From Rugalucina vietnamica (taxonomy: Eukaryota; Mollusca; Bivalvia; Lucinida; Lucinidae), in the NCBI GenBank assembly GCA_964017185.1, contig OZ024878.1, positions 12,843,351 to 12,907,350 of the forward strand: a DNA stretch of 64,000 nt, written 5' to 3'. How positions within the stretch are numbered: the stretch's first letter is position 1; each line of letters opens with the position of its first letter. A model generated the notes under the pieces. It made no database searches. It was not told the DNA's origin and was given only the letters and a program-made list of their open reading frames with translations. Positions 7,145 through 57,181 of the stretch are shown piece by piece. Position numbers and translations under genes: made by a program.

Positions 7145-7855
7145 AGCTAGTATCTCACTGGCATGCGAATTTCTCGCGACTGTTTTGCGAATTTTGTCGC
7201 GGACTTTCGCAGGACATTCGTGCGAGTGTCGCGCGAGTGTCGTGAGAATTTTCTTGTGTCGCGAAATAGTCGCGAACTGGTCGCGAAGTTTTTCAACATG
7301 TTGAAAAATTTTATGCGAATTTTTTCTCCAAAATATTTCGCAAGACTGTCGCGCGACTGTCGTGCGACGGTCACGCGACGTTCGTGCGAGTGTCGCGAAC
7401 TTGCCGCCGCGAAATTTTGGCGAAATTACAATGCGAAATTTTCGCGACACTCGTACGAATGTCGCGCAAGTATCGCACGACGGTCGCGCGATAGTCTTGC
7501 GAAAACCTCGCGACTATCTGGCGAGAAAATAAAACTAAGCGACATTCGTACGAATGTCGCGCGACACTCGCACGAATGTCGCGCGACTGTCGTGCGAATT
7601 TAAATGACAATAAGTTACATTCGCGGGAAAATCGTGAGATACTCTCACGAATGTCGCGCGACAATCGCGCGACAGCGACAGTCGCGCGATAAATTTTCAA
7701 AATTAGACTGAAATTCGCGAATTTGTCGCAAAAATGTCTATTCAATGAGACTGCAACGTGAAAGTTGTGTTTATATCGTTTATCTTTGTCACGAAATAGT
7801 CGCGAACTATTCGCAAACTAGTCTCCAGTTGTCGCATTCCAGTGAGATAGGGGCT
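7145..7855. mobile_element. Foldback MITE i, interior built of TCGCGCGAC words, TSD TAA
   Basis: 711 bp with imperfect terminal inverted repeats (left AGCTAGTATCTCACTGGC; right, reversed, AGCCCCTATCTCACTGGA), flanked on both sides by TAA (7142-7144 and 7856-7858). It splits a satellite unit. The interior is almost entirely variants of TCGCGCGAC, CGTGCGACG, TCGCACGA and similar words, so every frame on both strands opens into arginine/serine-rich pseudo-ORFs that are not genes. A 3-bp TAA duplication suggests a PIF/Harbinger-type transposase (inference). Confidence 0.75.
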
Positions 7856-9282
7856 TAAGGGTTTCTTGGTTTGGTTGCCATGGTTACAAAAATAAGAGAG
7901 AAACAAATTTCGCTTATTTTCGTTCGTATTTAAGGCAGCATATGTTCATATGTTTGTTTGTTGTTAGGAAATATTTTGGTTTGAAAATGTCACATTTATG
8001 TAAAATTGTTGAGGATTCCATTGTTTGGTTGCCATGGTAACAAAAATAAGAAACATTTTGAGTTATTTTATTCTTTGCATTTCAAAACCAAGTGTTGGTT
8101 AATAAGGCACAATATGCATAATTCATACACACTTGTGCTGTTAGGAGATAATTTGGTTTGAAAATGTATTTTTATTTATTTTTATTTTTTTGCAAATATG
8201 CAGACGGTTCCATTGTTTGGTTGCCATGGTTACAAAAGTCAGAAACATTTTAAGTTACATTGTTTGTTTGTTTGTTTGTTTAAATAAACAACAAAAGTAA
8301 CATATGCACTGTTCATAAATTTGTTAGTTGGTAGGAAATATTTTGGTTTAAAAATGTCATTTTTGTCAAATTGTTGAAGGTACCATTGTTTGGTTGCCAT
8401 GGTAACAAAAAATAAAAATATTCTGAGTTGTTTTATTCTTTGCATTTCAAAACCAAGTGCTGATAATTAATGCACTTTATGCATAATTCATATATACCTG
8501 TGCTGTTAAGAGATAATTCGGTTTGAAAATGTCATTTTTTGTAAAATTGTTGACGATTCCATTGTTTGGTTGCCATGGTAACAAAAATAGAAACATTCTG
8601 AGTTATCTTATTCTTTGCATTTGATACATAAGTTTTGGTCATTAAGGCACTATATACATAATTCGTATACACATGTGCTGTTAGGAGATAATTTGGTTTA
8701 AAAATGTCATTTTTTGCAAAATTGCTGACGAGTCCATTGTTTGGTTGCCATGGTTACAAAAAATAGAAACATTTTGAGTTATTTTATTCTTTGCCCTTCA
8801 ACAACAAGTGTTGGTTGTTAAGGCGCTATATATATAACTACTATACGCTCATGCTGTTAGGAGATAATTTGGTTTGAAAATGTCCAAAATTGGAAGTTTG
8901 AAAATTTGATTTATGAGGTAGTACTTACGTTGCTAGGCAGCAAAATGCAAATTTTATTTTTCAATTTTTTATACAATTTCATATAAAAGTCATGACGTGC
9001 TATTGATGTTAGTACATATATAGACATTCTAAACAATAATCATATCTCAAATACCACCTCAAAAAGTGTCAATTTGCACTTTTTCCTTTAACGATTTTCT
9101 GCCAATCACCGTGAAATTTTGATTTTTGGTTTCCATGGCAACCGCTGTCAGAAAAAGGGAATGCTTTGTTTTGTGAAAGTTTTTCAACAAGTCTGATTAA
9201 ATGAAGGTGAATTTAATGATTTCTGTGACTAGTCACTTATCACCATTTCTATAGGACCTGCATGATTCTTAGGGAGAATGCT

Positions 9283-9851
9283 AATTAAAAATCAAGTGGC
9301 AAGACAAGATCTCAGACACAGAGGTCCTGAAGAAATCAGGGATGCAAAGCTTGCATACTGTTTTAAAGCTAGCACAGCTAAGGTGGACTGGCCATGTTAT
9401 AAGAATGCCTGATGAGCGACTTCCAAAGAAAGTCTTCTATGGAGAACTACAAGAGGGAAAGCGCTCTCAAGATGGCCAGAAGAAACGCTACAAAGACACA
9501 CTCAAAGCCTCTCTGAAGGATTTCGACATACCAATTGGGTCTTGGGAACAGACTGCACAGGAGCGATCAAAGTGGCGAGGTCTCATTAACAAAAGAGCAG
9601 CTCTCTATGAAAAAATGAGAATCTGTGAAGCTGAAAGAAAGCGCAGAGAACGCAATGCCAATACCAATGGGCCACCAGCTGATTCAATGACACTGACTTG
9701 CTCTACTTGCAACCGACAGTTTAGAGCTAGAATTGGCCCAGTCAGCCATCAAAGACTCACCAACACACACGAACCTATTCAAGAAATAATGATGGTCTTT
9801 CTCACTAGTGAGAGACGAACGACCAATGTAAAGACTGGAAACATTCTCTGA
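9283..9851 (+). pseudogene. LINE, C-terminal part after the RT domain
   Basis: An open frame continues the element that broke off at 5315: KIKWQDKISDTEVLKKSG, LAQLRWTGHVIRMPDERLPK, FDIPIGSWEQTAQERSKWR, then a C-terminal CX2C zinc-ribbon-like motif TCSTCNRQFRARIGPVSHQR. These are the standard blocks after the RT in this LINE family. The likely element 3' end is the ACGAACGACC block near 9825, because from AATGTAAAGACTGG onward the sequence matches T-B. The last ~9 codons are therefore host transposon sequence. Confidence 0.8.
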
Positions 9852-10332
9852 CCGCTTCCACTGGCTTTAAATGTGGCTTTGCTTCTTTTTTTTTTCCATA
9901 ATTCAGACAATAATCTGCATCAAAACAGACAGATAACAATTTTATGGACCAAATGTCTATTTTTGTGATTGAAATTTGTATTATTTTACTTTCATTTTTC
10001 TGCCCACACGATCGCGTTAAATATTAGCTGTCAAGTTTAAGATTGAAAACAATTTCCGCAACTTTTGGCTATTCGCCTACTGGTAGTTCCTGTCCGAGTT
10101 GATAAATGCCATACTGCCGTACAGACAGGTGGTGGTAATATACAATACGGAAATATACGAGCAGCAACAAGCTCTGGCTAAGAAAGTCTGCCAAACCAAT
10201 ATTTATCCACAAACCTTTAATAAGTACTTCAGTCTGGTGCACACTGTATAAATCATATTGTATTCGGCCATCTGATTACATTTAAGGTCAATGGTTACGA
10301 AGAGTTCAGTGGGTTTTTTCATCAACACACTC

Positions 10333-55199: not shown

Positions 55200-55747
55200 C
55201 GGCCCCTTTCACTCGAGTTTGCCGTTTGAGCATTTGCATCACACAAGAAGACCATGTGTTCCGAGTTTCTTTTCATGTTGTCCTCAAAGACATCTGGATT
55301 GATTGATCTGCTGATTTGAGTGACAGCTTCAAACTAAATGACCTTTACAAATGGCAAACTCAAGTGAAATTTTTAACTTCCTATGTGGAATTTTTGCCAT
55401 GTAGATACCGATCAGGTAACTGCTTAAATTGATAAAATTTTGCTTTTGTCTCTATCCTGTTACAAATGTGTGTTCTTAATATGCATTGTATATGTTGTAC
55501 AAAGAATTTTGAAATAAAAATGTGCTTTAACCAAGCAATTACAATGTTTTTATCAGAAGAGGTGACATCATTACCTAAAGATAAATTAATCCTGAATAGA
55601 TTTTAAGAACACCTGGCACCTGCGGGACACTGTTTCAGTTCTAAAATAGAATAAAAAGTTACCTGATTTACAAACAAACGGCAAACTCGAGTGAACAAAT
55701 TTGATTGATTTAAATGCTCAAACGGCAATCTCGAGTGAAAGGGGCTG
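55200..55747. mobile_element. MITE with ~40-bp TIR, TA target duplication
   Basis: 548 bp. Left CGGCCCCTTTCACTCGAGTT and right (reversed) CAGCCCCTTTCACTCGAGAT, both followed by TGCCGTTTGAGCATTT; flanked by TA. Tc1/mariner-like (inference). Confidence 0.8.
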
Positions 55748-55858
55748 TAACATCTTGATAATTAGGAAGATCAGGGTTTATAGTGCTATTTCATACAAAA
55801 TCCTGTTTTTGGAATTTCCAGCCTGGACCAGAAATACAGAAATATAGTGAAACACAAA

Positions 55859-57181
55859 CAAGAGGACCAGTGGTCCTGTAAACGCTCGCCTAATCTGGAC
55901 AGTTTTATTTGTAAGGGAGCTAATGACCCCGGGCTCTGGGGCTTGGCCTGTTTGGACCCCAGGGGCATGGGTGGCAGAATTTAGAAAGAAGATTACTTCA
56001 CACTGCTTCACACAAAATATGAAAAACTCACGGTTAAGAGAATGTTTCTGGATATTATTGTTTTCTTCATTGTAGTATAAATATAGGAGATTATTTCCCC
56101 TTGGGTGGGACCATTTTGAACCACATGGGCATGATCGGGGGGTGGGGGTGGGGGGGGGTATGTAAAGCATCAAATAAGATTGCTACATACTAAATATACA
56201 AGCTTTGAGTCTTGTGGTTTCAGAGAAAAAGATTATTTTCATATGGCTGGTCATCAAAGTGCATTATTTATTTACACATTTTAGTTCTGTATTCCATGAT
56301 GCAGCTGCTACATGACAAGTTTCATGATTATAAGACTTGGGTTCTGGAGAAGATTTTAGTTTTCACCATATATGGCCATGGAAATTGCCTTTGTCATTTG
56401 TCCTGGATTATTTTTATACACTTTCCCCTTTCCTATAAGTGCTACATGGCTTGATTGTCAAAGTGGTTTTAGCACGTTTAAAGGAGAAGATCTGTGAAAA
56501 TGGTGGACAGATGACGAACCCTATCCTACCTTAGTTAAAACAGCAGTCATATAGTAGCGTAGAACCCAAACACGCGCCGGGCGTATGAAAAATCTCAACA
56601 CGCTGAAGACTTTGGACGTATAAAAATTAATTTCTTTTAACTCGCTTTAGCAGTTACACATTAGCCCGTGACTGAGGCGAGTGCCGGACGTATAAAAAAT
56701 CTCCAAGTTTTTGAGTACGGTTGTGATAAGTCCCAGACACGCTAACTGTTACCACGCGCTACAGACGTGCATCGAAAGTTCAACATGTGTATCACACACG
56801 CTTATAGGGCAAGCTACTGAAGCAACATCTAATGAAATCGGAACGCACATGTAACATACACTGGCGTGCCTCAAACGCGCTCCAAGTGCGTTCAGAGCGT
56901 ATTCAACCACCTGTAACTTAATCAAGTTAATCGGGACGTATAAGTCACACGCCCGAGACACGCCGAGCTTCTAGAGACTTTTAGCGATGTACAGCGACGC
57001 GCACCGGACGTACACCAAGCGTACCCAATGCACTTGTAGCGAGTTTTGAACGTGTTTCCGACGTGCGTCTGGCGTATGTGGAATTTCGCTATTTTTTCTA
57101 CACGCTGGCATGCGTTTCACTTATACGCTACTGTGTGACTGCTGTTTAAGCTCACATGAGCACCTCACTCAGGTGAGCTAA
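55859..57181 (+). mobile_element. R5 element hosting foldback iv
   Basis: Starts CAAGAGGACCAGTGGTCCTG then CGCTCGCCT, ends AGCTCACATGAGC...CACTCAGGTGAGCTAA. Core of GACCCC-type units related to 53930-54703. Foldback iv interrupts it just before the 3' hairpin. Confidence 0.6.
56539..57146. mobile_element. Foldback element iv, ACACGC/GCGT words, TSD TAA
   Basis: 608 bp, AACAGCAGTCATATAGTAGC and (reversed) AACAGCAGTCACACAGTAGC, both followed by GTA, flanked by TAA at 56536-56538 and 57147-57149. The interior is rich in GACGTATAA, CACGCGC and GCGTATG words. Confidence 0.8.

What the first reader, a model, noticed from the sequence alone, without database searches (positions are those of the whole stretch)
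7145..57146. Four foldback elements with unrelated interiors share one terminal signature and a TAA-like target duplication
Elements i (7145-7855), ii (15287-18480), iii (44815-46245) and iv (56539-57146) have different inverted repeats and different interiors. Aligned from the target duplication, however, all four carry T-C-A/T-C-A-C at exactly positions 9-14 of the repeat (ATCTCAC, GTCACAC, GTCACAC, GTCACAC). Three have TAA on both sides; element ii has TTA/TCA. Each interior is packed with its own short palindromic words (TCGCGCGAC, TACGGATA, TACGTACGT, CACGCG/GCGTAT). This suggests one transposase, plausibly PIF/Harbinger-type (known for 3-bp TWA duplications), mobilising elements whose sub-terminal word arrays have diversified in concert.
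Basis: partly seen in the sequence, partly recalled or inferred. Interest (0 to 1): 0.75.

Follow-up and report, generated by a model that had tools for sequence, protein, structure and literature searches.

The report
Four jumping-DNA families with shared ends
Four families of jumping DNA in an unnamed eukaryote genome share one end motif and one three-letter insertion signature, and a quarter of the copies that could be typed have two flanks that differ at the middle letter, as if the element brought letters along from its old site.

Summary
Observation confirmed, with a correction for element iv. The four elements are non-autonomous DNA transposons with unrelated interiors. Copies elsewhere in the 1.09-Gb genome confirm the termini: TIR positions 9-14 read TC[A/T]CAC, exactly 8 bp inside a TWA (TAA/TTA) duplication. 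Exact ends with TWA number 471 (ii) and 664 (iii); control pattern 0. No random quartet of TWA-adjacent 30-mers matched as well in 400,000 draws. The 20 fetched copies of iv lie inside one larger repeat, so their TAA is not independent evidence; one independent iv copy was found. Each interior is enriched in words from its own TIR, as expected for arrays of binding sites. PIF/Harbinger-type mobilisation fits best, but no autonomous partner was found, and a single shared transposase is unproven. New: among copies with TWA at both ends, 29 of 116 (25%) have TAA on one side and TTA on the other. Mutation is too rare to explain that. In the one mixed copy whose target is known from sibling sequences, one end keeps the target's middle letter and the other does not. 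I infer that the excised element carries its donor's 3-nt overhangs and that some are sealed into the new site, a model that predicts 25-33%.

The parts
7145..7855 (.). element i, non-autonomous DNA transposon (711 bp); TAA duplication at 7142-7144 and 7856-7858; interior of CGCGA-type words
   Evidence: 40 further full or near-full copies at 91-96% scored, of 2443 candidates; 3 ORFs of 124-146 aa here have no Pfam match
15287..18480 (.). element ii, non-autonomous DNA transposon (3194 bp here); flanks TTA 15284-15286 and TCA 18481-18483
   Evidence: left 374 bp in 40 scored places at 99-100% (this one included); 471 exact ends with TWA genome-wide
15924..17212 (.). second element nested in ii: ends GGGGTGCCGTTTTACTATTTATT, flanked by AT on both sides, full of GGATATCC words; looks ISL2EU-like
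   Evidence: single copy inspected, no family search
44815..46245 (.). element iii, non-autonomous DNA transposon (1431 bp); TAA at 44812-44814 and 46246-46248; GATACG/TACGTA word arrays at both ends, plain middle about 45360-45930
56539..57146 (.). element iv, non-autonomous DNA transposon (608 bp, shorter than most relatives, about 665 bp); TAA at 56536-56538 and 57147-57149; embedded in a larger repeat
   Evidence: independent copy L038:3032-3660
7153..7158 (+). signature of i, left end, positions 9-14 (TCTCAC)
15295..15300 (+). signature of ii, left end (TCACAC)
44823..44828 (+). signature of iii, left end (TCACAC)
57133..57138 (-). signature of iv, right end (TCACAC); the left end reads TCATAT

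Best explanation
Elements i-iv belong to four separate families of non-autonomous DNA transposons moved by PIF/Harbinger-type machinery. SHOWN: about 20-bp TIRs with TC[A/T]CAC at positions 9-14; a TWA duplication; unrelated interiors; interior words enriched for each family's own inner TIR; low divergence between copies; and a 25% rate of duplications that differ only at the middle W. INFERRED: a transposase of the DDE type, perhaps with a partner DNA-binding protein, reads the shared motif, while a family-specific binding surface reads the inner TIR and its many interior copies. The enzyme cuts donor and target with a 3-nt stagger across TWA, so the excised element leaves with 5' TWA overhangs. 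On insertion an overhang can pair with the target's 3-nt gap (outer T and A always pair; W and W may clash) and be sealed in. Repair then settles the clash at each end independently, leaving mixed TAA/TTA duplications.
For: TWA at both ends in 24 of 28 copies of i and 28 of 30 of iii, with flanks unlike each other except one pair of iii copies, L028 and L032. Ends: ii 243+228, iii 330+334, control 0. Signature not chance. Own-TIR words in own interior, hits per 100 positions: i 9.3 (200 shuffles: mean 2.0, max 5.0), ii 4.9 (1.4, 3.2), iii 12.4 (2.2, 4.9), iv 5.3 (1.3, 3.2). CpG observed/expected 1.47-2.34 in word-bearing parts against 0.84 in the window. Mixed duplications: i 6 of 24, ii 11 of 35, iii 4 of 28 read directly and 7 of 28 further by position, iv 1 of 1; 29 of 116 pooled, 95% CI 17-34%. 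P 2e-23 at an assumed 2% from mutation; P 3e-8 if the ends were independent (50%). One mixed copy, L026, sits in another iii copy, so its target is known from 33 sibling reads (one place counted twice): 32 CAA and 1 TAA, middle letter A in all. L026 has TTA on the left and TAA on the right, so one end keeps the target's middle letter and the other carries a foreign T. The overhang model gives 25% in the first generation and 33% at equilibrium. In print (passages read): mPing is cut with a stagger in the duplication (PMC4561436), and extrachromosomal mPing carries 3-nt TTA/TAA overhangs from the donor that appear at Cas9 target sites (PMC11254759).
Against: No autonomous element with these ends was found. 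TIRs of ii and iii begin with T or C, whereas PIF/Harbinger TIRs usually begin with A or G (PMC4482050). In yeast, mPing with TCA/TCA flanks gave 45 of 46 insertions flanked by TTA/TAA and one by TCA (PMC4561436), so donor overhangs are mostly lost there; the model needs a different outcome here. Words of ii are as dense in iii's interior (4.8) as in their own (4.9), and words of iii are also common in i and ii (4.2, 4.3). For iii, inward TAA ends exceed TTA ends (398 of 664), and 31 of 40 unpaired listed ends are TAA (counted); the model does not explain this. The 25% fit is post hoc. For 9 of the 10 directly read mixed copies no empty site was found in held DNA. Flanks of the 63 pairs typed by position were not seen, so their independence is assumed.
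Confidence: 0.6

Rival explanations
1. Same elements and PIF/Harbinger-type ends, but ordinary gap filling; mixed duplications arose afterwards by mutation, assembly error or recombination between copies.
For: Some duplications do show other changes: 6 of 58 directly read copies are not TWA on both sides (CTA/TAA, TTT/TTT, ATA/ATA, AAC/TAC in i; TTA/TCA, AAA/TAA in iii).
Against: Copies are close to each other: 1.8-2.7% from consensus in i and iii, 99% among the 40 best ii copies (only some of the typed pairs are among these), and the typed ii and iii pairs have exact ends. Yet 25% are mixed. Change is almost only A to T or back: 10 swaps of W against one W-to-C in the 58 copies read. Flanks of the 10 directly read mixed copies are unlike those of the other copies, so recombination would need a translocation each time.
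Confidence: 0.15
2. The shared TCACAC is convergence or chance among families moved by different transposases that happen to prefer TWA.
For: No shared sequence beyond the motif and a loose GCG/CGTA region; i has TCTCAC; no common transposase found.
Against: Exact positional match in four families; all four also show mixed duplications, iv in a single copy; a sister end of iii differs at positions 1, 3 and 4 but keeps CTGTCATAC (L014:1336).
Confidence: 0.2
3. A related but distinct transposase group (NuwaII-like, TNA target) or another superfamily with 3-bp duplications moves them.
For: Autonomous partner unknown.
Against: W at the middle in nearly all copies, no strong C before and G after the duplication, TIRs do not begin GG (criteria from PMC4482050).
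Confidence: 0.12
4. The interior word arrays are satellite-like sequence without a role in transposition.
For: iii keeps a 570-bp middle without words and ii carries a nested element, so interiors tolerate change. mPing work finds that internal GC content, not a specific shared word, goes with mobility (PMC9921582, passages).
Against: Words match the inner TIR of the same family in all four.
Confidence: 0.35

Closest known systems
PIF/Harbinger non-autonomous elements (Tourist-like MITEs; mPing)
   Same: TWA duplication, short TIRs, no recognised coding capacity, many copies. The rice mPing TIR contains GTCACA at positions 6-11 (recalled, from no call).
   Different: TIRs of ii and iii do not begin with A or G; the motif lies about 2-3 bp further in; interiors packed with CpG words; about a quarter of typed duplications are mixed.
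ISL2EU elements
   Same: Same DDE_Tnp_4 superfamily; present in this genome (THAP + DDE and YqaJ proteins); the element nested in ii has GG ends, AT flanks and palindromic words.
   Different: ISL2EU duplicates AT (PMC4482050); i-iv duplicate TWA.
NuwaII elements (PHIS superfamily)
   Same: Related transposases in animals; target TNA or CTNAG (PMC4482050).
   Different: No CTNAG context here and TIRs do not begin GG.

Membership tests
PIF/Harbinger | 3-bp TWA target duplication | tested here: met
   i: 24 of 28 and iii: 28 of 30 copies have TWA at both ends; ii 471 exact ends with TWA. One quarter of typed pairs differ at W.
PIF/Harbinger | TIRs that usually begin with A or G | tested here: inconclusive
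   i and iv begin with A; ii with T or C; iii with T; 'usually' per PMC4482050.
PIF/Harbinger | autonomous relative with a DDE transposase and a Myb/SANT protein | tested here: inconclusive
   DDE_Tnp_4 loci present, none tied to these ends; the search for the Myb family PF13837 did not complete.
PIF/Harbinger | precise excision | not testable with these tools
   needs activity data; the iv empty site was not found.
ISL2EU | 2-bp AT duplication, TIR beginning GG | tested here: not met
NuwaII | TNA or CTNAG target, TIR beginning GG | tested here: not met
   W at the middle in nearly all copies, no C-TNA-G context; no TIR begins GG
Helitron, retroelement or other non-TIR element | no TIR/duplication pair | tested here: not met
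   TIR and duplication seen in all four families

The most novel reading that the evidence does not exclude
In natural transposition of these elements the donor site's 3-nt overhangs travel with the element and are sealed into the new site in most events, so the 'target-site duplication' is partly a donor-site relic; the mixed TAA/TTA pairs are its molecular fossil, with a predicted steady rate of 25-33%.
Probability: 0.5. Interest if true: 0.7.

Novelty: new variant of a known kind. Interest (0 to 1): 0.52.

Why it matters
Target-site duplications are usually read as copies of the target alone. If a quarter of the typed pairs here are mixed because donor letters are carried over, duplications keep a record of how PIF/Harbinger-type ends are cut and sealed, readable from any genome assembly. 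It would also show in nature what has been seen with mPing delivered to Cas9 cuts (PMC11254759, passages). Families with a fixed core motif and swapped inner words would show how non-autonomous elements change recognition sites while still moving.

Tried and rejected
Autonomous partner: 30 DDE_Tnp_4 loci (best 30 of 150 scored) were scanned for paired ends with TWA-N8-T[C/T][A/T]CAC: 0 of 30 had them, but the loci hold only 1,500 bp on each side. THAP or YqaJ was found in 4 of 8 of these loci scanned by Pfam. High-CpG stretches like those of i-iv were found in 1 of 30.

The idea that TTA inward is a fixed part of the ii TIR came from the first 8 printed matches (7 TTA, 1 TAA); it was rejected when the whole count gave 243 TAA of 471.

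TTAA-type insertion (Kolobok, piggyBac; recalled) was rejected because many flanks are CTAA, GTAA or ATAA.

Empty site for iv: 0 matches in the genome and 0 in held DNA. The larger repeat without iv was not seen; it may be gone or too diverged.

A first duplication script for i used a wrong pattern and read 0 of 8; it was corrected. My shuffles move blocks of two bases and only roughly keep dinucleotides.

Dropped before the pooled count of 116: 6 directly read copies without TWA at both ends, the 20 fetched iv copies with shared flanks, the window's own ii (TTA/TCA) and iv copies, unpaired ends (30 of 100 listed for ii, 40 of 100 for iii), and 2 iii pairs already read as loci. Only the first 100 places of 471 (ii) and 664 (iii) are listed by the tool.

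Papers: passages only of PMC4482050, PMC2836001, PMC9179366, PMC9921582, PMC4561436, PMC11254759; others seen as search listings. I did not find mixed duplications reported as a natural signature in searches; the library lacks most subscription papers.
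Full report
WHAT WAS CLAIMED. Four inverted-repeat elements in the window (i 7145-7855, ii 15287-18480, iii 44815-46245, iv 56539-57146) were said to share TC[A/T]CAC at positions 9-14 of their ends and a TAA-like duplication, with unrelated interiors full of short words.

THE ELEMENTS ARE REAL. 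The sequence shows all four with the stated ends. The window lies in a eukaryote-sized assembly of 1.09 Gb in 47 contigs. Element i has 40 further full or near-full copies at 91-96% scored, of 2443 candidates. Element iii has about 40 near-full copies at 94-97% scored, of 6276 candidates. The left 374 bp of ii is in 40 scored places at 99-100%, the window included, of 811 candidates. Element iv has 40 scored full or partial copies at 81-100%, the window included, of 3061 candidates. Mean divergence from a majority consensus is 2.3% and 2.7% for i (8 and 20 copies) and 1.8% for iii (30 copies), so the scored copies spread recently. Five ORFs of 124-150 aa that overlap i, ii and iii have no Pfam match.

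THE SIGNATURE HOLDS. Ends (inward from the duplication): i AGCTAGTATCTCACTGGCATGCGA and AGCCCCTATCTCACTGGAATGCGA; ii [T/C]GCCTAGGTCACACTAG[C/G]GCTTACG; iii TAGGGCTGTCACACATTCGCGTATC and TAGC[A/T]CTGTCACACATTCACGTATC; iv AACAGCAGTCACACAGTAGCGTATAA. Columns 9, 10, 12, 13 and 14 are invariant; no random quartet of 400,000 reached five invariant columns in six. A looser scan for inverted pairs with this signature gave 4 hits in the window (i, iii, iv and one that looks like chance), against a mean of 0.4 and a maximum of 3 in 30 block-shuffled windows. Exact genome-wide matches of TWA plus end number 471 for ii and 664 for iii, against 0 for the reversed pattern. Exceptions: the left end of iv reads TCATAT, and a diverged end of the iii group, in L014 at 1336, differs at positions 1, 3 and 4 and reads CTGTCATAC.

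ELEMENT IV IS A SPECIAL CASE. The window copy and the 20 further copies fetched share their flanks on both sides for the 30 bp seen, so here iv travels inside a larger repeat and its TAA is not independent evidence. The repeat without iv was not found (0 matches). An independent copy with unrelated flanks, both ends TCACAC, and TTA on the left and TAA on the right lies in L038:3032-3660.

INTERIORS. Word-bearing parts have CpG observed/expected of 1.47-2.34, against 0.84 for the window. I asked whether six-base words of each family's inner TIR (positions 15-34) recur in its interior. Hits per 100 positions in the own interior were 9.3 (i), 4.9 (ii), 12.4 (iii) and 5.3 (iv), each above the maximum of 200 shuffles (5.0, 3.2, 4.9, 3.2). 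Off-diagonal values are lower, but words of ii reach 4.8 in iii, and words of iii reach 4.2 in i and 4.3 in ii.

THE DUPLICATION IS OFTEN MIXED. Directly read copies with TWA at both ends: i 18 same and 6 mixed, with 4 other, of 28; iii 24 same and 4 mixed, with 2 other, of 30. Flanks of these copies differ from each other except for L028 and L032, which share both (L032 is not in the pool). By pairing positions from pattern searches: ii 24 same and 11 mixed of 35 pairs; iii 23 same and 7 mixed of 30 pairs, 28 of them not already read, 7 mixed. With the one independent iv copy (mixed) the pool is 29 mixed of 116, 25%, 95% interval 17-34%. Rates do not differ between i, ii and the directly read iii (P 0.29). 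In mixed copies the outer T and A are kept and only the middle letter differs, A on one side and T on the other. At 2% mutation the pool has probability 2e-23; if ends were independent, 3e-8. Among the 58 directly read copies there are 10 A/T swaps and one W-to-C, so careless gap filling with any base does not fit either.

ONE MIXED COPY WITH A KNOWN TARGET. L026 is inserted in another copy of iii. In 33 sibling reads of that target (the window place is counted twice, as window and as L009) the three letters are CAA in 32 and TAA in one; the middle letter is A in all. L026 has TTA on its left and TAA on its right: one end keeps the target's middle letter, the other has a foreign T. The first T may mean that the host copy read TAA, or that it too is foreign. 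For the other 9 directly read mixed copies no empty site lies in held DNA.

MODEL. A 3-nt staggered cut across TWA leaves the excised element with 5' TWA overhangs. At the target the 3-nt gap is also TWA. Outer bases always pair; if donor and target W differ (half of events), both ends hold a mismatch, and independent repair of each end leaves a mixed pair half of the time: 25%. With mixed donors in the population the rate climbs to one third. The observed 25% fits (P 1.0 for 0.25; 0.06 for one third), but the model was made after seeing the data. Support in print, from passages only: mPing is cut with a stagger in the duplication and non-matching duplications hamper repair of the donor (PMC4561436); extrachromosomal mPing has 3-nt overhangs, and donor TTA/TAA appears at Cas9 target sites (PMC11254759). 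Against, in the same literature: mPing with TCA/TCA in yeast gave TTA/TAA at 45 of 46 insertions, so carry-over is rare there. Unexplained: inward TAA ends exceed TTA ends in iii (398 of 664) but not in ii (243 of 471).

WHO MOVES THEM. TWA and short TIRs fit PIF/Harbinger (criteria from PMC4482050, passages); two of four families lack the usual first base. The genome has many DDE_Tnp_4 loci (150 scored of 415 candidates). The 30 best were held with 1,500 bp each side; none has the signature at paired ends. Ten proteins from 8 of these loci were scanned: six are DDE/HTH transposases, two of them with THAP; three are YqaJ proteins and one has only a PHD finger. THAP and YqaJ mark ISL2EU. No autonomous partner was found; that one transposase serves all four is possible but unproven.

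VERDICT. Young families of PIF/Harbinger-like non-autonomous elements, with an unusual and testable pattern of mixed duplications seen in all four (in iv in a single copy).

Noticed in passing
window 15924-17212: Inside element ii lies a second element: ends GGGGTGCCGTTTTACTATTTATT inverted, AT on both sides, and 57 GGATATCC palindromes in 15901-17900 against none in the rest of the window. It looks ISL2EU-like and is also built of palindromic words.
   Followed up: partly
iii ends genome-wide: Inward TAA ends outnumber TTA ends (398 of 664), and 31 of 40 unpaired listed ends are TAA; ii shows no such skew (243 of 471). Unexplained.
   Followed up: no
ii copies on contigs C1 and C2: Among 35 paired ii copies, sizes run from 1.8 to 8.3 kb around a mode of 3.3 kb; 8 are over 4 kb and could hold a coding partner or further nested insertions.
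   Followed up: no
L026, L014, L013 and C15:14591052-14593854: Copies of iii inserted into or next to other copies of iii.
   Followed up: partly
L028 and L032: Two iii copies with the same flanks on both sides, so here iii too was copied as part of a larger segment.
   Followed up: no
window 57147-57180: The repeat that carries iv contains a near-palindrome AAGCTCACATGAGCACCTCACTCAGGTGAGCTAA beside iv.
   Followed up: partly
window 1087-1941 (-) and 4526-5047 (+): Retroelement remains: an ORF with a zinc knuckle (E 4e-7) and weak Ty3 capsid/gag matches below their cut-offs, and an ORF with a reverse transcriptase match (RVT_1, E 2e-12).
   Followed up: partly
genome loci L059-L088: Several transposase loci of the DDE_Tnp_4 kind are near-identical to each other (about 97-100%) with open reading frames, so this superfamily seems recently active in the genome.
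   Followed up: partly
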